This document shows, in pieces, positions 50,754 through 64,000 of a stretch of DNA of 64,000 nucleotides (the first letter of the stretch is position 1; each line of letters starts with the position of its first letter). A program made the translations under genes and the position numbers. The notes under the pieces are model-generated. The model searched no databases. It saw nothing but the letters and a program-made list of their open reading frames with translations, and was not told where the DNA came from. The DNA is from Sphingobacterium litopenaei (lineage in GTDB: Bacteria > Bacteroidota > Bacteroidia > Sphingobacteriales > Sphingobacteriaceae): contig NZ_JACOIJ010000007.1 in NCBI RefSeq assembly GCF_014692495.1, positions 62,001 to 126,000 on the forward strand, given 5' to 3'.

Positions 50754-53204
50754 ATGAAAGTTCTAAAATTTGGCGGAACATCTGTAGGAACAGTAGAAAG
50801 TATCAAATCTGTATTAGAGATTGTAAAGTCTTCTTATGAAAAGGGAGAAAAGCCTTTGGTGGTATTATCAGCAATGTCTGGAGTGACCAACTTATTGACA
50901 AAAATGGCTGAAAATGCTGCTGACCGCAAATCTTTCACCGAAGACATTAAATTGTTAGAGGAAAAGCACTTCGAAGTTGTAAAACAACTTATTGCAATTA
51001 AGTATCAAAATCCAGTTTTCACCAAACTGAAGTTGATGCTTAATGAGTTAGAAGAAATTTTGCAAGGTGTTTATGCGTTGAAGGAGTTAAGCTTGCAAAG
51101 TAAAGATTTGATTATTTCATTTGGTGAGCGCTTCTCCAACTATATGGTTTCTAAAATCATGGAACAATACATTCCCGAAGCTATATACGTAGATGCATCA
51201 CATTATGTGAAAACAGATTCAAATTTTGGAAATGCGCATTTGAATGAAGAATTAACCAATTCGTTGATCAATTCTTTGAATCATTCGCATGCAGATAAAT
51301 TGATGTTTGTGACGGGTTTCATTGGATCAAATGAAGCTGGTCGTGTGACTACCTTAGGCCGTGGAGGTTCGGATTATACTGCTGCAATTTTTGGATCGGT
51401 ATTGAATGCTTCGGTAATCGAGATATGGACCGATGTAAATGGTATGTTGACGGCGGATCCACGGATAGTGAAAAAAGCATTCTCTCTGCCTGTATTATCT
51501 TATACAGAGGCGATGGAATTGTCCTATTTCGGCGCGAAAGTAATCTACCCACCGACGATGATCCCGGCATTTTTGAAACGTATTCCTATTGCGATTCGCA
51601 ATACTTTTGAACCAGAATTTCCAGGTACGATTATTCAGTTCGAATCAGATTGTACACAATATCCAATTAAAGGTATTTCGTCCATCTCTGATATTTCTAT
51701 CATCAATCTTTCAGGTTCTGGAATGATTGGCAAATCAGGATTTTCAGGCCGTTTATTTACTTTATTAGCTCGCGAGCAGATCAATGTGGTGTTAATAACG
51801 CAGTCTTCATCCGAACATAGTATTACGTTTGCAGTAAATCCTAGCGATGCAGAAAGAGCACTGAAGTTGATTTCTTCGGAATTCGAATTGGAATTGGAAG
51901 CCAATAAATTGGTAATGCCAGAAGTAGAAACGAATCTTTCGGTATTGGCAATCGTAGGTGAAAATATGAAACGTACACCTGGTATGTCAGGACGTTTGTT
52001 CGCTGCGTTAGGACGTAATGGTATTAATGTACGCGCAATAGCACAAGGTTCTTCTGAATTCAACATCTCCGTAATTATCTCAAAAGATGATTTGGCTAAA
52101 GCCTTGAATGCAGTTCATGATGCTTTCTTTGCAGAATTGAAAAAAACGCTGCACGTATTTAACTTGGGTACTGGTAATATCGGCTCTACTTTATTTAGAC
52201 AGCTGGCTGAGCAGCATGATTTCTTATCAGAGAAAAATGATTTAGAAATCAAAGTTGTTGGTGTTGCTAATTCCCGTAAAATGTATTTTGATGCCAATGG
52301 AATTGATTTGGATTCTTGGGCTCAAGCATTGGATAGCAAAGGTCAGGTGGCGGATTTGTCTAGCTTTGTTGAGATCATGAAAAACATGAACTTGCCAAAT
52401 GCAGTCTTCATAGATAATACAGCCAGCAAATTACCTGCTACCTATTATGTGGATATTTTCAAATCTAATATTTCTATTGTCACTTGTAATAAAATTGCCA
52501 ATTCGGGTGAATATGCTAACTATAAATTGTTGCGCGACACAGCACGTAAACACGGTGTAGATTTCTTCTACGAAACTAATGTTGGAGCAGGTTTACCAAT
52601 AGTACGTGTATTGAAAGATTTGATGTTGAGTGGTGACAGAATCATAAAAATAGAAGCTATCCTTTCTGGTACGATTTCTTATATCTTTAACAATTTCGTA
52701 GGAGATGCTTCTTTCTATGATGTAGTAAAAAATGCACAAGCTTTAGGCTATACAGAACCAGATCCTCGCGATGATTTGGGAGGTGTAGATTTTATGCGTA
52801 AGATGCTTATCTTAGCTCGTGATGCAGGGCATGTGATTGAAGCTTCTGATGTTGATTTGGGTGCTATCTTACCAGAATCATGTTTGCAGGCCGCTTCAGT
52901 AGATGAATTCTATACGGAATTGTTAAAAGCTGACCAATATTTCAATGACCTAAAAGATAAAGCAGCTTCAGAAAATAAAGTAATTCGTTACATTGGTAAA
53001 TTGGAGGATGGAAAAGTTTCTATCTCTATGCAAATGGTAGATGAGACACATCCATTCTATGCGTTGTCGGGAAGTGATAATATTATCTCATTCACAACAG
53101 AACGCTATAAAGAACGCCCATTAGTAGTAAAAGGTCCTGGAGCTGGTGCGGAAGTAACCGCAGGAGGTGTGTTTGCTGATTTGGTAAACGTAGGAGCAAA
53201 ATAA
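50754..53204 (+). CDS. thrA: Bifunctional aspartate kinase / homoserine dehydrogenase I
   Basis: 816 residues. The N-terminal aspartokinase (KFGGTSVGTVESI, GRGGSDYTAAI, WTDVNGMLTADPR) is followed by two ACT regulatory modules (about residues 310-460) and by homoserine dehydrogenase (LGTGNIGSTLFRQL as NAD(P)-binding loop, CNKIANSG, YETNVGAGLPIV, ILSGTISYIFN). It phosphorylates aspartate and reduces its semialdehyde to homoserine; the ACT modules suggest threonine feedback. First gene of thrABC, behind the attenuator. Confidence 0.96.
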   Translation: MKVLKFGGTSVGTVESIKSVLEIVKSSYEKGEKPLVVLSAMSGVTNLLTKMAENAADRKSFTEDIKLLEEKHFEVVKQLIAIKYQNPVFTKLKLMLNELEEILQGVYALKELSLQSKDLIISFGERFSNYMVSKIMEQYIPEAIYVDASHYVKTDSNFGNAHLNEELTNSLINSLNHSHADKLMFVTGFIGSNEAGRVTTLGRGGSDYTAAIFGSVLNASVIEIWTDVNGMLTADPRIVKKAFSLPVLSYTEAMELSYFGAKVIYPPTMIPAFLKRIPIAIRNTFEPEFPGTIIQFESDCTQYPIKGISSISDISIINLSGSGMIGKSGFSGRLFTLLAREQINVVLITQSSSEHSITFAVNPSDAERALKLISSEFELELEANKLVMPEVETNLSVLAIVGENMKRTPGMSGRLFAALGRNGINVRAIAQGSSEFNISVIISKDDLAKALNAVHDAFFAELKKTLHVFNLGTGNIGSTLFRQLAEQHDFLSEKNDLEIKVVGVANSRKMYFDANGIDLDSWAQALDSKGQVADLSSFVEIMKNMNLPNAVFIDNTASKLPATYYVDIFKSNISIVTCNKIANSGEYANYKLLRDTARKHGVDFFYETNVGAGLPIVRVLKDLMLSGDRIIKIEAILSGTISYIFNNFVGDASFYDVVKNAQALGYTEPDPRDDLGGVDFMRKMLILARDAGHVIEASDVDLGAILPESCLQAASVDEFYTELLKADQYFNDLKDKAASENKVIRYIGKLEDGKVSISMQMVDETHPFYALSGSDNIISFTTERYKERPLVVKGPGAGAEVTAGGVFADLVNVGAK

Positions 53205-53228
53205 GTGGAAAGAACTAAAACAGATAAT

Positions 53229-54227
53229 ATGCCTGTTTATCAACATAATTTAAAGGACAAAAAGATAGATTTTAATACAATCTTAGATAAGGTTCGCGTA
53301 TTTGCACCTGCAACAGTAGCTAATATGATATGCGGCTTCGATATATTAGGGTTTGCGGTTGATGAACCTGGTGACGAAGTTAAAATGTACCGTGTCGCCG
53401 AACCTGGTGTTCGTATTCGTTCCATAGTTGGGGACGGAGGCAGATTGCCGCTTGGTGCTGATCGAAATACGGTAAGCGCTTGCGTGAAAATGCTATTGAA
53501 TGATTTGGGTATTTTGCAGGATATAGGGGTAGAAATTGAATTAATCAAGCATATGCCCATTGGTTCGGGATTAGGTTCGAGTTCAGCGAGTACGGTGGCG
53601 GGTTTGTTTGCAATAAATGCTTTGCTTAACAATCCACTGACTAAGGATGAGTTAATGCCATACTGTGTGGAAGGGGAACGATTGGCTTGTGGGCATGGAC
53701 ATGCTGACAATGTAGCTCCTGCTTTGATGGGAGGTATTACATTAGTTCGTGGCGGTGCGGATTTGGATATTGTAAAAATTCCTGTTCCTAAGGAACTCTA
53801 TGCTGGTATTGTCTTTCCACAAGTAGATGTGCCTACACGTGATGCGCGTCAGTTGATTAAGGAGAAAGTTCTTTTGAAAGATGCGGTAACCCAATGGGGA
53901 AATATTGCCGGTTTGGTAGCTGGTTTATTTCAAGAAGATTATGATTTAATCAGCAGAAGTATGCAGGACGTTATTATTGAACCTTCTCGCGCTATTTTGA
54001 TTCCGGAATTTTATGCAATGAAAGAAATAGCTTTAGCACATGGCGCCTTGAGTTTTGGTATTTCGGGTTCAGGACCATCGGTTGTAGCGGTTTCGAAAGG
54101 GCCAGAAGTAGCGGAATTGGTAACTACGAAAATCCAAGATCATCTTTCTGCAAATGGCATCGAAAGCTTTAAATATGTTTCGGCTGTCAATGTAGAAGGT
54201 CCAAAAGTATTATCCTTTAATGACTAA
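53229..54227 (+). CDS. thrB: Homoserine kinase
   Basis: About 332 residues of the GHMP kinase family: APATVANMICGFDILGFAVD at the start of the core and the ATP-binding loop PIGSGLGSSSASTVAG. It makes O-phosphohomoserine. Upstream of the usual start region there is an extra stretch of about 20 residues; I chose the ATG at 53229, while a GTG immediately after the thrA stop (53205) is possible and would couple translation. The next gene, thrC, starts 6 bases after the stop. Confidence 0.94.
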   Translation: MPVYQHNLKDKKIDFNTILDKVRVFAPATVANMICGFDILGFAVDEPGDEVKMYRVAEPGVRIRSIVGDGGRLPLGADRNTVSACVKMLLNDLGILQDIGVEIELIKHMPIGSGLGSSSASTVAGLFAINALLNNPLTKDELMPYCVEGERLACGHGHADNVAPALMGGITLVRGGADLDIVKIPVPKELYAGIVFPQVDVPTRDARQLIKEKVLLKDAVTQWGNIAGLVAGLFQEDYDLISRSMQDVIIEPSRAILIPEFYAMKEIALAHGALSFGISGSGPSVVAVSKGPEVAELVTTKIQDHLSANGIESFKYVSAVNVEGPKVLSFND

Positions 54228-54233
54228 CAAATT

Positions 54234-55541
54234 ATGAAACTATATAGTACAAATAATAAAGATTTACGTGTATCTTTTCAGGATGCGGTATTCAATTCCT
54301 TGCCTCAGGACAAAGGCTTATATATGCCAGAGGTTATCCCAAATTTAGATCCCTTATTTATCAAAAATATTCAGCAATATTCTTTGCAAGAAATTGCGTT
54401 GACAGTAGCTTCTGCTTTGATTGGCGATGATATACCGAAAGAAGATTTAAAGAAAATCGTCGAAGATGCCATCAATTTTGATGCCCCTGTGAAATTCTTA
54501 GATGCTGAGACTGGAGTTTTGGAATTATTTCACGGACCTTCTTATGCATTCAAAGATTTTGGAGCGCGTTTTATGAGCCGTGTGATGGGTTATTTCTCCA
54601 AACAAGGTGATAAATTGTTGGATGTGTTGGTTGCTACTTCGGGTGATACAGGTGGTGCGGTTGCTTTAGGTTTCTTAGGCGTGGAAGGCACTCGCGTGAC
54701 GATTTTGTATCCCAAAGGAAAGGTCTCTAAAGTACAAGAAGAGCAATTGACAACTAATGGTCAAAATATCCGTGCGTTAGAGGTGGATGGAACTTTTGAT
54801 GACTGTCAAGCTTTGGTAAAGCAAGCTTTTAACGATGCCTCGTTGAATGCTGAATTGCGATTGACTTCAGCTAATTCTATCAATATTGCTCGTTTGATTC
54901 CTCAGACTTTCTATTACTTTTGGGCATATGCACAGTTAAAAGCACAAGGTGTCAACGAAGTTGTGTTTACTGTTCCTAGCGGAAACTTTGGTAATATCGG
55001 GGCTGGTTTATTAGCCTACAAAATGGGCTTGCCTGTAAAACATTTTGTCGCAGGAACGAATGTCAATGATACTGTTCCTCGCTTCTTACAGTCGGGAGCT
55101 TACGAACCAAAACCTTCTGTTCAGACTTTAGCAAATGCAATGGATGTAGGAAATCCAAGCAATTGGGTACGTATTCAAGATTTATTTGATAATGAATTAG
55201 ACAAATTGCGTAGCATTATTTCTTCATTTACATATACAGATGAAGAAACTCAGGTTGCTATGCGTGAATTGTTCGAGAAATACAATTATGTAGCATGCCC
55301 ACACACAGCAATTGCGTATTTAGCAGCTCAAGCATACAAAGCTGAAAATCCAGGAGAATATGCTTCGGTATTTTTATCAACAGCACATCCATGCAAATTC
55401 CCTGATGGCATTGATGCAGATATTTTTGAAAAAGTTACTTATCCAGCAGGAGCTGAAGAATTGGCAGGAAAGCCAAAATTAGCAGATCCTTTAGCAGTTA
55501 GCTACGAAGATTTTAAAGAATATTTATTGAAGAATAAATAA
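54234..55541 (+). CDS. thrC: Threonine synthase
   Basis: 435 residues. It converts O-phosphohomoserine to threonine with pyridoxal phosphate. FHGPSYAFKDFGARFM contains the cofactor Lys; VATSGDTGGAVA, PSGNFGNIGAG and CPHTAIAYLA are standard for the long-form enzyme. Last gene of the operon, closed by a strong terminator. Confidence 0.96.
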   Translation: MKLYSTNNKDLRVSFQDAVFNSLPQDKGLYMPEVIPNLDPLFIKNIQQYSLQEIALTVASALIGDDIPKEDLKKIVEDAINFDAPVKFLDAETGVLELFHGPSYAFKDFGARFMSRVMGYFSKQGDKLLDVLVATSGDTGGAVALGFLGVEGTRVTILYPKGKVSKVQEEQLTTNGQNIRALEVDGTFDDCQALVKQAFNDASLNAELRLTSANSINIARLIPQTFYYFWAYAQLKAQGVNEVVFTVPSGNFGNIGAGLLAYKMGLPVKHFVAGTNVNDTVPRFLQSGAYEPKPSVQTLANAMDVGNPSNWVRIQDLFDNELDKLRSIISSFTYTDEETQVAMRELFEKYNYVACPHTAIAYLAAQAYKAENPGEYASVFLSTAHPCKFPDGIDADIFEKVTYPAGAEELAGKPKLADPLAVSYEDFKEYLLKNK

Positions 55542-55562: not shown

Positions 55563-55595
55563 AAACGCCCCTTTTGAAACAAAAGGGGCGTTTTT
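55563..55595 (+). terminator. Strong terminator of thrABC
   Basis: A perfect 14-bp stem (55563-55576 with 55580-55593) with a 3-base loop followed by Ts. It separates the thr operon from the SusC/SusD operon. Confidence 0.85.
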
Positions 55596-55674: not shown

Positions 55675-58600
55675 ATGAAGAGTATTTTTTTTATTAGGAG
55701 TGGGTTTAAGCCCATTCTAGGAGAAGTTCCATTAGGACTTTCAATGTGTGGACTGTTTTTGATGTCTACTTTGAATGTTCATGCTAACCAAACCAATTCA
55801 CCCTTATCAAACTTATCTAAATATCATATTTCTCAACAGCAACTAGTAGTAAAAGGGGTTGTATTAGATGTTCATGGTAATGTAATTGCTGGTGTTTCTA
55901 TTGAAGTAAAAGGTAAAAGTGGCAAGACTTTAACATCTGTACTCGGGGAATTCAGTATAAACGCTGCAATTGGCGACGAACTTATTATCTCACATTTATC
56001 TTATGAGCCTAAAATAATAAAGGTGTCAAACAATACCAATCTTCAAATTATATTACAATCTATAGATAATTTAATTGAAGAAGTGACAATAACGGGGTAT
56101 ACTGATTATTCAAAAGGTAAAAGCCCAAGTGCAGCATCACTCGTTAAGGCTGATGATATTAATCAAGTTCCAATGAGTTCTTTAGATCAGATACTTCAGG
56201 GAAAGGTAGCAGGAATGAGTGTTATTTCAAGTTCAGGACAACCAGGTCAAAGTGCTGCTGTGGTTATTCGTGGAATAGGTTCTATTAGTGGTTCTACGAC
56301 ACCATTATATATTATGGATGGCGTTCCTATTGAGGGAGGTTATTTTCAAACCATTAATCCGCAAGATATAGAATCCGTGAACGTATTAAAGGATGCCTCT
56401 GCAAAAGCCTTATATGGTTCTAGAGGATCAAATGGTGTTATTATTATTACGACCAAAAAAGGTAAGCAAGGTCGTCTAGCGATAAATTATAGCTCTCAAT
56501 ACGGAACATCAAAGCTTACACGTCCTAATTTTGAGATGATGGATGGTCGTGAACGTCTTAGATTCGAAGAAGAGGTTGGATTAGAAACTGGAAAAGATAT
56601 AGGTCCAGGATGGAGATTTTCTTCACGAAATCCATATTATAATACGCAGTCAGCGAGCTGGCAACAAAATGCGGATAGGACATTGGATAGTTTACGCAAT
56701 GTGAATACAGATTGGCGAGATTTATTTTTTCAAAATGCCAATTTCATGGAGCAACAAGTAAACTTAAGTGGTGGAAATGAAAATGTGCAAACCTACAATG
56801 CGTTGAGTTATTGGAAAGAGGAGGGTATTGTCCGTGAAACGGGTATGGATCGTTATACTTTGCGTAGCAATACGAATATGAATTACGGAAAGTTCTCAGC
56901 GGCATTCAACTTGAACTTGGGATATTCTAACTCTAGATTTACGTATAATGAGGGCGGAACAAGCGTTGGAACGCCAATGGCTTCTGTCTATTATGGTCTA
57001 CCTTATGAGTATCCTTATACTGCAGATGGGGCATTTCATGCGACTAATGAAGAAATTACTTTCTTGGATTCGCGGGAAGGAAGTCGAGGATTAGACGTTT
57101 TGTTTGGTACGTCTGATAAAACTCAACAAATTAAAGCCATTATAGGTTTTAACATGGCTTATGCTATTACACCCAGTTTGAAAATAAGTACTCGTGCTGG
57201 TCTTGATTTGAGAAATTCAGCAGATCAGGTATATATCAATCCGTCATCCTATATAGGTAGTCGTCAATCTGGACAGAAAGGAGCTTTCGGAGAAGGATAT
57301 AGACGTAATTTTAATTTTGTATCTACATCTGGGTTGACTTACAAAAAAGAAATCGAAGCTCATGATTTTGAACTTTCGGGATTCTTCGAATATCTTTTTG
57401 ACAACTATAGAGCATTTAGCTACCGCGGTTTTGGACTAGATGATAGACTCCCTGAAACACCAGCTGCTATCACCGTAAGTACAACATTCCTACCAACATT
57501 AAGTGGAAGTCGTAGTGCAAGTGCTTTAATGTCTTACATTGGCGCTGCGCGTTATACCTATGCCAATAAGTATACTTTTACAGGTAGTTACCGCTATGAC
57601 GGAGCTTCGCTTTCATCTGTCCCAGACAAAAATCGCTGGCATGGTTTCTATTCATTGGGAGCAATGTGGGATGTAAAGCGTGAAGAATTCCTTCAATCGT
57701 CAAGCCTCATTTCAGATTTAAGAATCAGAGCAAGTTTCGGGCAAACAGCAAGTCCATTTGGAAGTAGTTTTGCGTACTTGCCTACTTACGGCGTAACTAC
57801 AAGTTATGGTGGTCAGCAAGGTATTCGTCCGAATAATATTGGTAATCCAGACTTCGATTGGGAATATGTGGATGAATTCAATACTGGATTTGATTTGTCA
57901 TTATTCGAAAGTAGAAGAATAAATATTGAATTTGACTGGTACAATCGTATTACAAAAAATATGTTTATCGATCAACCATTATCAGCAACCTCTGGTGCGT
58001 CGTCTGCATTATTGAGTACGGGTAAAATGAGAAATCGTGGTGTTGAATTAAAAATCTCAGCTGACATTATCAAAAAAGAGGAATTCACATGGACTGTAGG
58101 TGTTAATGGTGGATATAATAACAATCAAATCTTACGCGTAACTGATATTACGGACGAATTGCCTGATGGTGATACGCGTATTATAAAAGTCGGATTACCT
58201 TACGGAACGTATTATGCTCCACAATGGGCTGGTGTGAATCCTGAAACTGGAGAAGCGCAGTATTACAATCGAGATGGCTCTATTTTAACAGTATATAATG
58301 AGGAAGAGCAGGCGGTGCCATTAAACGCGAGTCTCTATCCTAAACTTACTGGAGGTATATCTACATCTTTCAATTGGAAAAATTTAACACTTAGTGGTTT
58401 GCTATCATTCGTGTCTGATGTGCAACGATGGAATAATATTGATTTTTACAATGAAAATCAGGCCTATATGACCAGCAATCAGAGCAAACGAATGCTTTAT
58501 GATAGATGGAAGAAGCCAGGAGATATAGCCACACTACAGCGTATAGATATTCCAAGGAATTTTACTTCCAAGGATATTCAGGATGCAGCATTTATGCGTT

Positions 58601-58806
58601 TACGTAATTTGAAATTGAATTACACTATACCAGGGACAGTATTTAGACAAACTGTATTTAGATCAGCAGCCATATTTGCACAAGGAGAGAATTTATTCAC
58701 ATTGACTAATTGGCGCGGTTTGGATCCTGAAAACAATCGTCAATATGGACGTTTTGAATATCCAAATGCACGTAAGTATACGATTGGTATTAATGTTAAC
58801 TTCTAA
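55675..58806 (+). CDS. SusC/RagA-type TonB-dependent outer-membrane transporter
   Basis: 1043 residues with a long signal region (to HANQ). A carboxypeptidase-like regulatory domain (VVKGVVLDVHGNVIAGVSIEVKG, about residues 60-140) is followed by the plug (SLDQILQGKVAGM, VVIRGIGSISG, TTPLYIMDGVPI, SVNVLKDASAKALYGSRGSNG) and a 22-strand-type barrel ending ARKYTIGINVNF. It lacks the N-terminal secretin/TonB short domain seen when such receptors signal to an anti-sigma factor. With SusD it should import an oligomer across the outer membrane. The neighbours indicate a peptide polymer, cyanophycin, not a glycan. No clear promoter was found in the 79 bases between the thrC terminator and the start. 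Confidence 0.92.
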   Translation: MKSIFFIRSGFKPILGEVPLGLSMCGLFLMSTLNVHANQTNSPLSNLSKYHISQQQLVVKGVVLDVHGNVIAGVSIEVKGKSGKTLTSVLGEFSINAAIGDELIISHLSYEPKIIKVSNNTNLQIILQSIDNLIEEVTITGYTDYSKGKSPSAASLVKADDINQVPMSSLDQILQGKVAGMSVISSSGQPGQSAAVVIRGIGSISGSTTPLYIMDGVPIEGGYFQTINPQDIESVNVLKDASAKALYGSRGSNGVIIITTKKGKQGRLAINYSSQYGTSKLTRPNFEMMDGRERLRFEEEVGLETGKDIGPGWRFSSRNPYYNTQSASWQQNADRTLDSLRNVNTDWRDLFFQNANFMEQQVNLSGGNENVQTYNALSYWKEEGIVRETGMDRYTLRSNTNMNYGKFSAAFNLNLGYSNSRFTYNEGGTSVGTPMASVYYGLPYEYPYTADGAFHATNEEITFLDSREGSRGLDVLFGTSDKTQQIKAIIGFNMAYAITPSLKISTRAGLDLRNSADQVYINPSSYIGSRQSGQKGAFGEGYRRNFNFVSTSGLTYKKEIEAHDFELSGFFEYLFDNYRAFSYRGFGLDDRLPETPAAITVSTTFLPTLSGSRSASALMSYIGAARYTYANKYTFTGSYRYDGASLSSVPDKNRWHGFYSLGAMWDVKREEFLQSSSLISDLRIRASFGQTASPFGSSFAYLPTYGVTTSYGGQQGIRPNNIGNPDFDWEYVDEFNTGFDLSLFESRRINIEFDWYNRITKNMFIDQPLSATSGASSALLSTGKMRNRGVELKISADIIKKEEFTWTVGVNGGYNNNQILRVTDITDELPDGDTRIIKVGLPYGTYYAPQWAGVNPETGEAQYYNRDGSILTVYNEEEQAVPLNASLYPKLTGGISTSFNWKNLTLSGLLSFVSDVQRWNNIDFYNENQAYMTSNQSKRMLYDRWKKPGDIATLQRIDIPRNFTSKDIQDAAFMRLRNLKLNYTIPGTVFRQTVFRSAAIFAQGENLFTLTNWRGLDPENNRQYGRFEYPNARKYTIGINVNF

Positions 58807-58835
58807 GCTAGGCACACTCTAATAAAATTAAACGT

Positions 58836-60260
58836 ATGATAAGTATCAGAAAAAATATATGTATTGTTTTATCATTAATTGGACTAGGTCTCCAATCATG
58901 TGATAAATTAGATATGGCGCCAACAGATAGTATTGATCCAAGCAAAGCATTTCGAAATTTGGACGATGTGAATATGGGCGTTTTAGGAGCTTACGCTCCA
59001 CTTTCAACAACTTTGTTGGAAGCAGGTGCAATTGTGTCAGATGAAGTTTTGTTGCCAACAGAAAATACAGTTTCAAATACTGCTTTACACCGTTGGATGT
59101 ATAACTCTAGCTATGGATCTGTAACTTCTGCATGGAATGAATATTATGTTGTAATTGATCGTGTTAACCATGTCCTTGAAGCATTGCCAAATATTACGGT
59201 AACAGGAAATAATCAAATTTTAAAAAATCAATATGAGGCAGAACTTTTGGCTTTGCGGGCATACAGTCATTTTGAACTGTTGAGAGGATATGCTTCTTCG
59301 TATGATGCAGAGGGAATGGGGGTTCCGTATATGAAGGCAAGAGCATTAGGCTATCCAGCTCGACCAACTGTCAAATCCAATTATGAGGATATCAATGCAG
59401 ATCTACAAGCTGCAAAAGATTTAATGCCAACATCTTTTACAGAGAATATACGAATTACTAAAACAGCTATATCTGCAATTCAGGCACGAGTTGCATTATA
59501 TGCAAAGAATTGGCCAGATGCAATTAAGTATGCGTCTGAAGTAATCTCAGCAGAGCCTCTCGCACCTAAAAATGATTTTCCGAAAATTTGGGTAGACAAC
59601 AGTAATTCAGAGGTTGTTTGGAAATTAGCTAGAGTGATCGGAGATTCTCGTCTTGGAGCTGCGTTTTATAGAGAAGCCGGTGGAATAGTTTTATATGCGC
59701 CATCTTCTAAATTAATTAATACCTTCAATAAGACAGATGATATTCGTTACGCTGCATATATTAAGGATGATCCTTCACGTGTTGGTCCTCCTCCAAGTAT
59801 AAAATCACAATATTTGGTGAATAAATATATCGGTGGAAATACCACAAACCCAGGTTTGACAGATGTTAAGATTTTCCGTACAGGAGAAATGGTTCTGATC
59901 AGGGCAGAAGCTGAGGCCGAAAGTAATAGTGCTACAGGATTAACTAATGCTGCAAATGATCTTAATACATTACGTAGAGAGCGTATTCATAACTATGTGA
60001 ATCAGACATTCTCATCGAAGCAGATTTTATTAGAAAATATTTACAACGAAAGATTTAAAGAATTGGCTTTTGAGGGACATCGTTTTTATGATTTAAAACG
60101 CTTAAAGCTTCCGGTGGAGCGATTAACCCAAGATGCGGCAAATACTTCTGGTGCTGTAAAATTAGAACCTACGGCGGCACAATACTGTTTCCCAATTCCA
60201 AATGACGAGATGGCTGTAAACAAAAACATGGTTCAAAATCCAAAATACGGAAAGGATTAA
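58836..60260 (+). CDS. SusD/RagB-type surface lipoprotein
   Basis: 474 residues with a lipobox (LQSC, then DKLDMAPTD). The SusD N-terminal region (SIDPSKAFRNLDDVNMGVLGAYAPL), TPR-like middle (AELLALRAYSHFELLRGYAS) and C-terminal RagB/SusD domain (ENIYNERFKELAFEGHRFYDLKRL) are all clear. It forms the lid on the SusC barrel and binds substrate at the cell surface. It follows SusC by 29 bases, and the cyanophycinase gene starts one base after its stop. Confidence 0.92.
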   Translation: MISIRKNICIVLSLIGLGLQSCDKLDMAPTDSIDPSKAFRNLDDVNMGVLGAYAPLSTTLLEAGAIVSDEVLLPTENTVSNTALHRWMYNSSYGSVTSAWNEYYVVIDRVNHVLEALPNITVTGNNQILKNQYEAELLALRAYSHFELLRGYASSYDAEGMGVPYMKARALGYPARPTVKSNYEDINADLQAAKDLMPTSFTENIRITKTAISAIQARVALYAKNWPDAIKYASEVISAEPLAPKNDFPKIWVDNSNSEVVWKLARVIGDSRLGAAFYREAGGIVLYAPSSKLINTFNKTDDIRYAAYIKDDPSRVGPPPSIKSQYLVNKYIGGNTTNPGLTDVKIFRTGEMVLIRAEAEAESNSATGLTNAANDLNTLRRERIHNYVNQTFSSKQILLENIYNERFKELAFEGHRFYDLKRLKLPVERLTQDAANTSGAVKLEPTAAQYCFPIPNDEMAVNKNMVQNPKYGKD

Positions 60261-60261
60261 C

Positions 60262-61314
60262 ATGATAAAATTAGTAGGGATTATAGCATTGTTGTATGGA
60301 TTTACTAGTTGTGGTAATAAGGAACTACCGAATCCATTTGACCCCAATGCACCCAAACCAACTTCACCATTAGCACGTCCGTCATCGTTAGGTATATTAG
60401 GAGACACTACTGATGTAAAGACAATTACTAAAGGAGGTGTGGTCATCATGGGAGGCGGTACCGATGTTGATGCAGCTTTCAAGTGGATGATCGACCGTAG
60501 TGGAGGTGGTGACGTAGTTATTATCCGTGCAACTGGAACAAATGCATACAACGATTATGTAAATCGTCTAGGTAAAGTGAATTCAGTGGAGACGCTAAAA
60601 ATTGATTCGCGCAAATTGGCCGATGATGATCGTGTTGCTGGTATCATTAGAAATGCGGAGATGCTCTTTATTGCAGGAGGCGATCAGGCTGATTATGTGG
60701 GCTATTGGAAGGGCACAAAAGTTATGCAAGCGATTAATTATCTACTTGCTGATAAAAAAGTACCTGTTGGAGGAACAAGTGCGGGGGCAGCCATTCTGGG
60801 TAATTATTATTTCGGAGCTGATCGCGGAGGAGTAGATTCTGAGGAAGCGCTAAGTAATCCTTATAATACAAAGGTGTCTTTGGGAAAAGATGATTTTCTT
60901 AAAGCACCATTTATGAGTAACATTATTACAGATCAGCATTTCGCACAGCGAAATAGAGAGGGCAGATTGACCGTATTTCTTTCTAGAATATTGAAAGATT
61001 GGGGAAAGGCAGCTAATGCGATTGCGGTAGATGAACGTACCGCAGTATGTATTGATGAAAACGGAGTCGCTGAAGTTTTTGGGTCTAACAATGCTTTTTT
61101 TGTTAAATCAGATATTACGAAACAGCCAGAATCGGTTTTGAGCGGTGTTCCACTAACTTGGGATCATTCCGGAAAAGCATTACAAGTATTTTCTGTTTCA
61201 GGTACAGAAAGCAATAATAAATTTAATATGAATACATTCCAACCTCAAAGTTCATCCTTATATAAAAGTGCTTGGTGGTCCGTGGTTGCGGGTGGTTGGA
61301 AATCGGTTCAATAA
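60262..61314 (+). CDS. Cyanophycinase-like S51 serine peptidase, lipoprotein form
   Basis: 350 residues with a lipobox (FTSC, then GNKELPNP), so probably anchored at the outer membrane. The S51 core has VVIMGGGTD, FIAGGDQADY, the nucleophile Ser173 in VGGTSAGAAILG and the cyanophycinase-type segment NIITDQHFAQRNREGRL with the catalytic His. Cyanophycinases cut the poly-aspartate arginine polymer cyanophycin to beta-Asp-Arg dipeptides. The C-terminus is extended by about 50 residues beyond the usual core. The position right after SusD is where a surface-acting endo-enzyme of a utilization locus is expected. Confidence 0.85.
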   Translation: MIKLVGIIALLYGFTSCGNKELPNPFDPNAPKPTSPLARPSSLGILGDTTDVKTITKGGVVIMGGGTDVDAAFKWMIDRSGGGDVVIIRATGTNAYNDYVNRLGKVNSVETLKIDSRKLADDDRVAGIIRNAEMLFIAGGDQADYVGYWKGTKVMQAINYLLADKKVPVGGTSAGAAILGNYYFGADRGGVDSEEALSNPYNTKVSLGKDDFLKAPFMSNIITDQHFAQRNREGRLTVFLSRILKDWGKAANAIAVDERTAVCIDENGVAEVFGSNNAFFVKSDITKQPESVLSGVPLTWDHSGKALQVFSVSGTESNNKFNMNTFQPQSSSLYKSAWWSVVAGGWKSVQ

Positions 61315-61326
61315 ACGATTATATAT

Positions 61327-62376
61327 ATGAAAGGTATTTTAAAATATGTGATTATAGGTTTTATAATTCAATCATTTTATGGTTGTAATTCTAAAACTAA
61401 CGAGAGCGAAAATGATAATAAAATCGTTTTGGTAATTCATGGTGGTGCTGGAACGATAGAAAAGAAGCATATGACTCCTGAAAAAGAGAGATTGTATCAT
61501 GAAGCATTGACAATGGCACTGCAAAAAGGTTATGATGAGATAAAATCAGGGAAAGAAGCATTAGATGCAGTTCAAGCAGCAGTTAATGTCTTAGAAGATT
61601 CTCCATTATTTAATGCAGGTAAGGGAGCAGTATTCACAAATGAAGGTAAAAATGAATTGGATGCTTCAATAATGGATGGCGCTACTTTGAAGGCCGGTGC
61701 TGTTGCTGGTGTATCAACACTAAAAAATCCAATTAATGCAGCACGTGCTGTGATGGAGAAATCTGAGCATGTGATGATGGTAGGCAAAGGTGCAGAACTC
61801 TTTGCGTTATCTCAGGGCTGTGATACGGTATCTCCTTCTTATTTTTACACCAAGGAACGTTGGGAACAATTAGAACGTACAAAAAAGGAGGAGGAAGAGG
61901 GCAGAGCTGCTTACAACTTTAATCCTCGTGAAAGTATGATTGCAGGGGTAACGAGCGAAGATAAAAAATTCGGAACTGTAGGAGCTGTCGCTTTAGATCA
62001 GAAAGGGAACTTAGCTGCAGGAACATCCACTGGAGGTATGACAAATAAGCGCTATGGCCGTGTAGGCGATTCTCCAATAATTGGTGCAGGTACTTATTGT
62101 AATAACGCTACTGCAGGGATATCTTGTACAGGTTGGGGGGAATTTTATATACGAGAAGTGGCTGCACATCGTGTTTCTAACCTAATTGAATTAAAAGGAT
62201 TATCAGTGGTTGATGCGACCAAACAGGTAATTGGAGAAATTGGGAAACTTGGTGGAGACGGAGGTATTATTTCTTTAGATAAAAATGGAAAAGTAGCGAT
62301 GGAGTTCAATACTTCGGGAATGTACCGCGGTACTGTGGATGAAAAGGGTAATATATCAATTTACATTTATAAATAA
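61327..62376 (+). CDS. Isoaspartyl peptidase / plant-type L-asparaginase, lipoprotein
   Basis: 349 residues with a lipobox (FYGC, then NSKTNE). Ntn-hydrolase motifs: VIHGGAGTIEKKHM, NAGKGAVFTNEGKNELDASIMDG and the autocleavage and nucleophile site KFGTVGAVALD with Thr217, then AGTSTGGMTNKRYGRVGDSP. The family cleaves beta-aspartyl peptides and asparagine. Enzymes of this group split the beta-Asp-Arg dipeptide released by cyanophycinase into Asp and Arg. It lies 12 bases after the first cyanophycinase and 4 bases before the second, so the three act in series. Confidence 0.88.
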   Translation: MKGILKYVIIGFIIQSFYGCNSKTNESENDNKIVLVIHGGAGTIEKKHMTPEKERLYHEALTMALQKGYDEIKSGKEALDAVQAAVNVLEDSPLFNAGKGAVFTNEGKNELDASIMDGATLKAGAVAGVSTLKNPINAARAVMEKSEHVMMVGKGAELFALSQGCDTVSPSYFYTKERWEQLERTKKEEEEGRAAYNFNPRESMIAGVTSEDKKFGTVGAVALDQKGNLAAGTSTGGMTNKRYGRVGDSPIIGAGTYCNNATAGISCTGWGEFYIREVAAHRVSNLIELKGLSVVDATKQVIGEIGKLGGDGGIISLDKNGKVAMEFNTSGMYRGTVDEKGNISIYIYK

Positions 62377-62380
62377 TCGA

Positions 62381-63223
62381 ATGGCAAGAGTAAGTATAAC
62401 TGGATTTTTATTGCCTATCCTGATAATGTTTATGTCTTTAGCTCATGCCCAGAAGGGTAAATTATTCATTATCGGCGGTGGAGAAAGATCCTCAGCTTTA
62501 ATAGCAGATTTAGTGAAAACATCAGAATTACGTTCGACGGATTATATAGTAATATTGCCAATGGCTACAAGTGTACCTGAAGAATCTATTGCATATATCA
62601 GTGAACAGATTTCCGAATTCTCTAATAATAAGATTGTAAGTTTCAATTTTTCTAAAGAACAAGCCAATAACAATACAAATTGGATCGATTCCGTGAAAAA
62701 TGCCCGATTGATTTATGTAACGGGTGGCGATCAAAATAAATTTATGGAGATAGTTCGCGATTCTAAATTATATGAAGCTATGCATGAGGCCTATCGTGAT
62801 GGTGCGACCATTTCTGGTACAAGTGCTGGAGCCGCAATCATGTCCAAAGTCATGATTACTGGTTCACAAAAGCAAGACTCAAAAAGTGATTCATTCCGTG
62901 AAATAAAAGCAGATTATGTAGAGGTTTCCTCTGGAATGGGATTTTTGAAAAATGTAATTATTGATCAACATTTTATAATTCGTAGCCGATATAATAGATT
63001 GCTAAGTGTGTTATATGATCATTCTGATAAAACAGTTGTTGGGATTGATGAGGGTACAGCATTAGTAGTTTCTAAAAATAAGGCCCGCATCAGTGGTGAT
63101 AGCCAGGTACTCGTGGTGAACAATCCTAAAAACAAAAAAAATATGCCTAATGGAAAAGTCTCTTTTCAGCAAGCAAACTTATCGATTTACGTCCACGGAC
63201 AAGAATTTAAATTAAAAAACTAA
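62381..63223 (+). CDS. Second cyanophycinase-like S51 peptidase, exported
   Basis: About 280 residues with a cleavable signal peptide (to LAHAQ) and no lipobox Cys, unlike the first copy. S51 motifs: KLFIIGGGERSS, IYVTGGDQNKF, Ser148 in ISGTSAGAAIMS and NVIIDQHFIIRSRYNRLLSVL, then VVGIDEGTALVV. It should be soluble in the periplasm, where it could finish fragments brought in by SusC/SusD. The ATG at 62381 (MARVSITGF) is chosen because it follows the isoaspartyl peptidase stop by 4 bases; an upstream start would overlap that gene. Confidence 0.85.
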   Translation: MARVSITGFLLPILIMFMSLAHAQKGKLFIIGGGERSSALIADLVKTSELRSTDYIVILPMATSVPEESIAYISEQISEFSNNKIVSFNFSKEQANNNTNWIDSVKNARLIYVTGGDQNKFMEIVRDSKLYEAMHEAYRDGATISGTSAGAAIMSKVMITGSQKQDSKSDSFREIKADYVEVSSGMGFLKNVIIDQHFIIRSRYNRLLSVLYDHSDKTVVGIDEGTALVVSKNKARISGDSQVLVVNNPKNKKNMPNGKVSFQQANLSIYVHGQEFKLKN

Positions 63224-63240
63224 TTATTTAACATATAACT

Positions 63241-64000
63241 ATGAAAAGGTTTTTACTACTAGCTGGATGTATTATCAACATAATGTTGATAGGTTCGTGT
63301 TCCGGTGAAAAATATAATTTCGACGATTTGCCTCGAGCAGTGAAAAGTTACTTCACAATATCGAACGTTGAGCTTAATATAAATGAAGCTATTTTATTCA
63401 AGAACGAGTCTGAAGATGCGACAACCTATCTTTGGGATTTTGGTGACGGTACGACTTCATCCGAAGCAAATCCTTCCAAAATATATACAGTACCAGGTAT
63501 GTATACGGTTAAGCTAAAGGCTATTGGCGATGGAGGGACTGGTAATTATTCACAGGATATTGCTGTTATTGATCCTAATGTGGTCATAGAAACGGATAAT
63601 GAGTTATATTTTATAGAATATAATTCTGATCTTATCAGAAAACTATCCTTAATTCCAGGTTCTAATGTTGAGACCGTGGCTAATATGTCAGGAAAAGGTG
63701 GTCATGGAATGACTTATGATCATGTAAGCAATAAGATCTATTTTTGTGATTTTGAAAATACCAACAACGGTAAGATTTTGCGTATGAATCTAGACGGAAC
63801 TAACATTGAAGAGGTGTTAACAGGTTTAGGATCTCCTTATGGGGTAGCGATCAATTATGCAGAAGGTAAAATGTACATTGCAGATGGTGCAAACGTTTCA
63901 AGAGCTAATCTCGATGGAACCGGCTTTGAAAAGCAATTTGTAAATATCTCAGGTGGTGCTATGCGCGCTGTTGGATTCAGTACAAAAACTAACCTTATTT
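63241..64000 (+). CDS. PKD plus beta-propeller lipoprotein (runs past window end)
   Basis: An open frame from the ATG at 63241 to the window end (253 codons, incomplete). It has a lipobox (IGSC, then SGEKYNFDD), a PKD domain (about residues 35-110; TTYLWDFGDGTTSSEANPSK) and the first blades of a YWTD/NHL-type propeller (GKILRMNLDGTNIEEVLTGL, SPYGVAINYAEGKMYIADGA). PKD and propeller domains bind ligands at surfaces. In SusC/SusD loci this position often holds a surface binding lipoprotein. It lies 17 bases after the second cyanophycinase, in the same operon. Confidence 0.75.
   Translation, partial: MKRFLLLAGCIINIMLIGSCSGEKYNFDDLPRAVKSYFTISNVELNINEAILFKNESEDATTYLWDFGDGTTSSEANPSKIYTVPGMYTVKLKAIGDGGTGNYSQDIAVIDPNVVIETDNELYFIEYNSDLIRKLSLIPGSNVETVANMSGKGGHGMTYDHVSNKIYFCDFENTNNGKILRMNLDGTNIEEVLTGLGSPYGVAINYAEGKMYIADGANVSRANLDGTGFEKQFVNISGGAMRAVGFSTKTNLI

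What the first reader, a model, noticed from the sequence alone, without database searches (positions are those of the whole stretch)
55675..64000. A SusC/SusD-type utilization locus built for cyanophycin instead of a glycan
One tight operon encodes SusC, SusD, a lipoprotein cyanophycinase, an isoaspartyl peptidase, a second exported cyanophycinase and a PKD/propeller lipoprotein. Gaps are 1-29 bases, and no glycoside hydrolase, lyase or sulfatase is present. Cyanophycinase releases beta-Asp-Arg dipeptides, and isoaspartyl peptidases split them to Asp and Arg. All three enzymes carry export signals, so the polymer would be attacked at the surface, imported by SusC/SusD and finished in the periplasm. 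Using the SusCD machine for a poly-amino acid is uncommon, and I know of no characterised example for cyanophycin.
Basis: partly seen in the sequence, partly recalled or inferred. Interest (0 to 1): 0.82.

Follow-up and report, generated by a model that had tools for sequence, protein, structure and literature searches.

The report
Cyanophycin-scavenging SusC/SusD operon in Sphingobacterium
A soil-type bacterium carries a six-gene operon that very probably digests and imports cyanophycin, a nitrogen-storage polymer made by other bacteria, using a transporter type best known for sugars; this kind of locus is already in the literature, and what is added here is strong evidence that it is real, widespread and put together several times.

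Summary
Window 55675-64368 (the last gene runs past the window) is one operon, susC-susD-S51a-iaaA-S51b-PKD/propeller. Hairpin-plus-U-run terminators flank it and it holds no carbohydrate enzyme. The genome is a Sphingobacterium that lacks cyanophycin synthetase; its only S51 genes are these two. Both S51 proteins keep the nine CphB active-site positions checked. The IaaA keeps its catalytic Thr and ligand residues. All three enzymes have export signals.

In 401 genomes of the order, 75 of 75 orthologues of this SusD sit beside S51 genes, against 0 of 25 of the next-nearest SusD group. S51-linked SusCs fall into at least three lineages (Sphingobacteriales/Chitinophagaceae, Flavobacterium, Flammeovirga/Cyclobacteriaceae/Bacteroidales). 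Exported IaaA goes without, and cytosolic IaaA goes with, a YfcC-type inner-membrane transporter.

The claim of no precedent is wrong. A "cyanophycin utilization locus" was described in the Bacteroidete L21-Spi-D4 (Salinivirga) in 2017, TonB-receptor/cyanophycinase linkage in 2012, and the Flammeovirga pacifica cluster was cited in 2023.

Verdict: real, well supported, a new member of a known kind. Substrate and transport are inferred, not shown; one close structural homologue (titled pseudo-CphB) was, as I recall, inactive.

The parts
55563..55593 (+). intrinsic-terminator-like hairpin (14 bp stem, U-run) that separates thrC from the operon
   Evidence: L003 564-594
55675..58806 (+). SusC-type TonB-dependent outer-membrane transporter
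   Evidence: TIGR04056 696 bits, cut-off 368; closest solved chain is RagA, 338 bits
58836..60260 (+). SusD-type lipoprotein lid / substrate-binding protein
   Evidence: PF07980, PF14322; orthologues tied to S51 genes in 75 of 75 genomes
60262..61314 (+). S51a: lipoprotein cyanophycinase-like enzyme, proposed surface depolymerase
   Evidence: PF03575 and TIGR02069 below cut-off; lipobox FTS|C; nine CphB active-site residues kept; AF2 model closest to cyanophycinases 7uqv/7uqw/3en0
61327..62376 (+). IaaA: lipoprotein Ntn isoaspartyl aminopeptidase / plant-type asparaginase
   Evidence: PF01112 387 bits; closest PDB is E. coli IaaA; N67 T179 T197 R207 D210 T230 G231 G233 equivalents kept; lipobox FYG|C
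62381..63223 (+). S51b: cyanophycinase with an ordinary signal peptide, proposed periplasmic
   Evidence: TIGR02069 161 bits, cut-off 126.6; residues kept; signal peptide MARVSITGFLLPILIMFMSLA|HAQ
63241..64000 (+). PKD + YWTD-type beta-propeller lipoprotein (continues to 64368 outside the window), proposed surface binding protein
   Evidence: PF18911; propeller similarity to LRP4/LRP6; full ORF; lipobox read directly from the sequence (IGS|C)

Best explanation
This is an operon for scavenging extracellular cyanophycin. The SusC/SusD pair, with the PKD/propeller lipoprotein as an accessory surface binder, captures the polymer or large fragments at the cell surface. The lipoprotein S51a trims the insoluble polymer outside. 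SusC/SusD imports oligomers or beta-Asp-Arg dipeptides. The periplasmic S51b finishes depolymerisation to beta-Asp-Arg, and the lipoprotein IaaA splits the isopeptide bond to Asp and Arg, which enter the cell through general transporters. The organism cannot make cyanophycin, so this is feeding, not turnover of its own store. Shown by computation: gene content, motifs, export signals, terminators, conservation, absence of cphA1. Inferred: substrate, activity, compartment of each enzyme (inner or outer leaflet of the outer membrane), import by SusCD, induction.
For: S51b passes the cyanophycinase cut-off. Both S51 proteins keep Q101 S132 D172 Q173 H174 R178 R180 R183 E201 of CphB, while PepE-like proteins of the same genus do not. 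The S51a model matches cyanophycinases better than peptidase E (E about 1e-17 to 1e-16 against 1e-9 or worse). IaaA keeps the Ntn Thr and ligand residues and is nearest E. coli IaaA. All are exported. No cphA1 in the genome, and only these two S51 genes. SusD orthologues lie by S51 in 75 of 75 genomes, against 0 of 25 for the next SusD group. S51-linked SusC falls in at least 3 lineages. Some relatives add a basic-amino-acid-antiporter-like gene. Nearest solved SusC is RagA, the P. gingivalis transporter implicated in protein uptake (PMC11817032 abstract).
Against: No member of the S51a or S51b clades has been assayed, to my knowledge. The nearest solved sequence to both, 7uqv, is titled pseudo-CphB and also keeps all nine residues; from memory its authors found no activity, so residue conservation is not proof. 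S51a is below the curated cut-off. IaaA-type enzymes are promiscuous (PMC10206079), so IaaA does not by itself specify Arg. No arginine transporter or regulator lies in this operon. Unlinked SusC proteins in the tree were few (8).
Confidence: 0.75

Rival explanations
1. The operon handles isoaspartyl (beta-Asp) peptides or other aspartyl polymers, such as damaged proteins or poly-aspartate, rather than cyanophycin; the S51 enzymes are relaxed exopeptidases and IaaA is a general isoaspartyl peptidase.
For: IaaA/IadA from cyanophycin clusters are promiscuous (PMC10206079); SusC is nearest RagA; neither S51 clade has a characterised member.
Against: The Arg-pocket residues R178, R180, R183 and D172-Q173 of CphB are kept in both window enzymes; two different cyanophycinase-type enzymes in one operon point to a polymer; the PepE type differs at these sites.
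Confidence: 0.15
2. Cyanophycin is digested by these enzymes, but SusCD and the propeller protein import something else, or only take up free dipeptides; the genes are merely co-regulated.
For: Exported S51b+IaaA gene pairs exist without SusCD in some Pedobacter-type relatives (L119, L122, L123, L125).
Against: Near-perfect linkage of this SusD clade with S51 and at least three separate SusC lineages linked to S51.
Confidence: 0.12
3. One or both S51 proteins are catalytically dead (pseudo-CphB-like) and act as cyanophycin-binding proteins; the other carries the activity.
For: Nearest solved sequence to both is 7uqv, titled pseudo-CphB, which keeps the same nine residues.
Against: Triads are intact; S51b passes the cyanophycinase equivalog cut-off; the operon supplies the downstream peptidase.
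Confidence: 0.12
4. Turnover of the cell's own or kin-released cyanophycin instead of scavenging from other species.
For: In family members outside the genus the locus usually coexists with cphA1 (51 of 55 carriers, my count).
Against: The window genome has no cphA1; none of 20 locus-bearing genomes of its genus has it; both enzymes are exported.
Confidence: 0.04

Closest known systems
Cyanophycin utilization locus of Salinivirga cyanobacteriivorans L21-Spi-D4 (Ben Hania et al. 2017, PMID 27943642; cited in PMC10206079)
   Same: Bacteroidota; cyanophycinase genes, an isoaspartyl dipeptidase and a transporter in one locus for scavenging. Its two S51 homologues differ in build, one with a Por/T9SS domain (PMC6243061). 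From memory, the abstract calls the transport complex homologous to polysaccharide utilization loci.
   Different: It uses iadA, not iaaA. Here the outer S51 is a lipoprotein without a T9SS tail, IaaA is exported, and a PKD/propeller lipoprotein is added. The paper itself could not be read here.
Flammeovirga pacifica WPAGA1 cluster (named as cyanophycin-scavenging in PMC10206079; locus L111 here)
   Same: susC-susD-PKD-S51b-iaaA in one direction, with further S51 genes
   Different: IaaA is cytosolic, followed by a YfcC-type transporter and an S51a-type protein that is large (696-717 aa; T9SS tail shown for the Flammeovirga SJP92 copy, L096); SusC belongs to another lineage
TonB-dependent receptor next to a cyanophycinase gene in Citromicrobium JLT1363 (PMC3400609)
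   Same: TonB-dependent transporter proposed to take up cyanophycin, from gene neighbourhood
   Different: Alphaproteobacterial; no SusD mentioned there
RagAB of Porphyromonas gingivalis
   Same: SusCD-type pair that takes up a non-glycan (protein/peptide) substrate; closest solved relative of this SusC (PMC11817032 abstract)
   Different: General peptides; not in an operon with cyanophycinases (own knowledge)

Membership tests
Cyanophycin utilization locus | cyanophycinase gene(s), an isoaspartyl dipeptidase gene and a transporter clustered | tested here: met
   definition from PMC10206079
Cyanophycin utilization locus | no cyanophycin synthetase beside it or in the genome (scavenger) | tested here: met
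   best TIGR02068 match 107 bits against a cut-off of 850
Cyanophycin utilization locus | growth on, induction by, or degradation of cyanophycin | not testable with these tools
   needs bench work
SusCD (polysaccharide) utilization locus | adjacent SusC and SusD genes in an operon with degradative enzymes | tested here: met
SusCD (polysaccharide) utilization locus | carbohydrate-active enzymes | tested here: not met
   none in the operon; so it works like a PUL but is not a polysaccharide locus
Cyanophycinase (TIGR02069), S51b | curated model score above 126.6 | tested here: met
   161.1 bits
Cyanophycinase (TIGR02069), S51a | curated model score above 126.6 | tested here: not met
   85.2 bits; fold and residues agree all the same
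Cyanophycinase | Ser-His-Glu triad and Arg/Gln/Asp pocket of CphB | tested here: met
   all nine positions in both proteins; choice of pocket residues recalled from the CphB structure work
Cyanophycinase | hydrolysis of cyanophycin | not testable with these tools
   7uqv, titled pseudo-CphB, keeps the same residues
IaaA isoaspartyl aminopeptidase | Ntn Thr nucleophile and Asp-binding residues | tested here: met
   site numbering recalled from the E. coli IaaA structures
IaaA isoaspartyl aminopeptidase | curated equivalog cut-off (PRK10226, 567 bits) | tested here: not met
   349 bits: same family, not the E. coli equivalog

The most novel reading that the evidence does not exclude
Bacteroidota built cyanophycin 'utilisomes' at least three times from different SusCD pairs, with two alternative endings: beta-Asp-Arg is cleaved in the periplasm by an exported IaaA (Sphingobacteriales, this window), or it is carried into the cytosol by a YfcC/DcuC-type transporter that would be a dedicated beta-Asp-Arg importer and cleaved there by a cytosolic IaaA (Flavobacterium, Flammeovirga, Robertkochia).
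Probability: 0.5. Interest if true: 0.6.

Novelty: new member of a known kind. Interest (0 to 1): 0.45.

Why it matters
It supports a SusCD machine working on an isopeptide-branched amino-acid polymer and gives named, cultured species in which this can be tested at once. Cyanophycin synthetase genes are very common in the same family (216 of 401 genomes), so soil and water bacteria other than cyanobacteria may supply the polymer, and Sphingobacterium would be a specialised consumer that makes none. The surface/periplasm split of the two cyanophycinases and the two ways of ending the pathway are concrete predictions. As a category it is not new.

Tried and rejected
RNA element upstream of susC: none in Rfam. 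YfcC-type transporter elsewhere in the window genome: no match, although no positive control was run in that search. Naming S51a a cyanophycinase by the curated model alone: rejected, it scores below the cut-off. Conserved active-site residues as proof of activity: rejected, because the PDB entry titled pseudo-CphB keeps all nine. Reading the source paper for Salinivirga (10.1111/1462-2920.13639): not held. The PNAS cyanophycin dipeptide hydrolase paper: not held. Salinivirga was not among the loci returned by the genome scan, so its locus was not compared directly. An own-genome search with the TIGR02068 family gave only weak matches, best 107 bits; I take these to be Mur-ligase/ATP-grasp relatives. 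A class-wide search found the S51b clade sparse (9 of 345 genomes).

Full report
WHAT IS THERE. The window lies in a Sphingobacterium genome: the nearest named locus is S. bovisgrunnientis, 94% identical over S51b. Six genes run on the + strand: SusC 55675-58806, SusD 58836-60260, S51a 60262-61314, IaaA 61327-62376, S51b 62381-63223, and a PKD + YWTD-propeller lipoprotein 63241-64368 that ends outside the window. A hairpin-plus-U-run terminator stands between thrC and susC (55563-55593) and another hairpin follows the sixth gene (64387-64414; called on the - strand, but the stem is palindromic). The scan as a whole found no more terminators than shuffled sequence (5 against 4.8), but these two have 14- and 12-pair stems and sit exactly at the operon's ends. 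No carbohydrate-active enzyme is present.

THE ENZYMES. S51b scores 161 bits on the cyanophycinase model (cut-off 126.6); S51a scores 85, below it. With Synechocystis CphB (3en0) as ruler, both keep Gln101, Ser132, Asp172, Gln173, His174, Arg178, Arg180, Arg183 and Glu201, whereas PepE-like proteins from the same genus differ at four of the nine. An AlphaFold2 model of S51a (mean pLDDT 77) matches cyanophycinases first (7uqv, 7uqw, 3en0; E 2e-17 to 4e-16), then another S51 peptidase (8e-11) and peptidase E (9e-10 and weaker). In a tree, S51a-type and S51b-type proteins form two well supported Bacteroidota clades, apart from PepE-like proteins and from the two solved cyanophycinase-family proteins. 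The peptidase keeps the catalytic Thr and the ligand residues of E. coli IaaA, its closest solved relative. Export signals: lipoprotein for S51a and IaaA, ordinary signal peptide for S51b (heuristic script, not a trained predictor).

A CAUTION. 7uqv, the nearest solved sequence to both S51 proteins, is titled 'pseudo-CphB' in the PDB. I recall that its authors found it inactive, though I could not read that paper. It also keeps all nine residues. Activity must therefore be measured.

THE ORGANISM. The genome has no cyanophycin synthetase (best match 107 bits against a cut-off of 850) and no S51 gene other than these two. Cyanophycin synthetase is common in the order (216 of 401 genomes). Among carriers of this SusD I count 0 of 20 with cphA1 in the window's genus, and 51 of 55 outside it. 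For this organism, scavenging is the natural reading.

CONSERVATION. In 401 genomes of the order, 75 SusD matches score at least 440 bits and 74 have an S51b within 8 kb. The one exception has S51a and IaaA beside it. None of the next 25 SusD matches (250-440 bits) has an S51b nearby. Spacing comes in two main classes: SusD-IaaA-S51b, and SusD-S51a-IaaA-S51b. Of 58 Bacteroidota loci from the genome scan, 41 have a same-strand SusC within the fetched stretch, 39 of those with SusD and 35 with IaaA. These counts are not independent, since the genomes are related.

SEPARATE ORIGINS. A SusC tree (30 linked, 8 unlinked) places the linked ones in separate lineages: Sphingobacteriales/Chitinophagaceae (15), Flavobacterium (4), and Flammeovirga/Cyclobacteriaceae/Bacteroidales (8); at least four label changes are forced by supported branches. 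Few unlinked sequences were included and some branches are long, so 'at least three' is a cautious reading.

TWO ENDINGS OF THE PATHWAY. Among loci with S51b and IaaA, 38 have an exported IaaA and no YfcC-type gene; 14 have a cytosolic IaaA and 13 of those carry a YfcC/DcuC-type transporter gene beside S51b or IaaA (annotation). The transporter scores 368 bits on 'putative basic amino acid antiporter YfcC', below its cut-off of 500. This complementarity fits a dipeptide that is either split outside the inner membrane or carried in first. It rests on few independent lineages. S51a-type proteins are lipoproteins in all 19 Sphingobacteriales/Chitinophagaceae cases and carry T9SS sorting domains in the Flavobacterium (L092) and Flammeovirga (L096) copies scanned, which suggests that S51a is the outer enzyme by two different export routes.

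KNOWN OR NEW. PMC10206079 states that Ben Hania et al. described a cyanophycin utilization locus (cyanophycinase genes, iadA, a transporter), and names strain L21-Spi-D4 and Flammeovirga pacifica WPAGA1 as scavengers. F. pacifica is locus L111 here and has SusC-SusD-PKD-S51b-IaaA. PMC3400609 had proposed cyanophycin as a TonB-receptor substrate in 2012. PMC6243061 notes two S51 proteins in Salinivirga, one with a Por domain. The concept is therefore known; I found no paper on this locus in Sphingobacterium. RagAB, the closest solved SusC relative, is an example of a SusCD-type system with a non-glycan substrate.

HOW IT PROBABLY WORKS. Surface capture by SusD and the propeller protein; trimming by lipoprotein S51a; import through SusC; completion by S51b in the periplasm; isopeptide cleavage by IaaA; uptake of Asp and Arg by general transporters. 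The gene facts are shown; every step of flow is inferred.

Noticed in passing
L091-L094, L098, L099, L113 (Flavobacterium), L096, L105, L109-L111 (Flammeovirga), L104 (Robertkochia): A YfcC/DcuC-type transporter gene lies in the locus exactly where IaaA is cytosolic; candidate importer of beta-Asp-Arg.
   Followed up: partly
L119, L120, L121, L125: Exported S51b (with exported IaaA in L119 and L125) near a Na+:dicarboxylate symporter gene, without SusCD, in Pedobacter-type relatives; fits uptake of released Asp.
   Followed up: partly
L049 8063-8962; L051-L053 S51-like ORFs of about 540 aa: Other S51-like proteins of the same genus with altered motifs (GGRQ or GGFQ, GSSAGA; R183 replaced by D in L049) lie beside or near other SusCD pairs; possibly a different substrate.
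   Followed up: no
L046/L061 (S. cavernae) and L064 (S. tabacisoli): susC is split into two ORFs in these two species: decay or assembly error.
   Followed up: no
order-wide: Cyanophycin synthetase is in 216 of 401 genomes of the order, but in only one listed genome of the window's genus.
   Followed up: partly
L065 and L075 loci, cluster c5/c7 genes: FecR and ECF sigma-factor genes stand beside the locus in many relatives but not in the window, so regulation differs between genera.
   Followed up: no
window 50754-55541: The operon follows thrA-thrB-thrC (Asp-derived threonine pathway), separated by a strong terminator; a threonine-synthase-sized gene (cluster c35) also precedes it in L058, L059 and L088.
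   Followed up: partly
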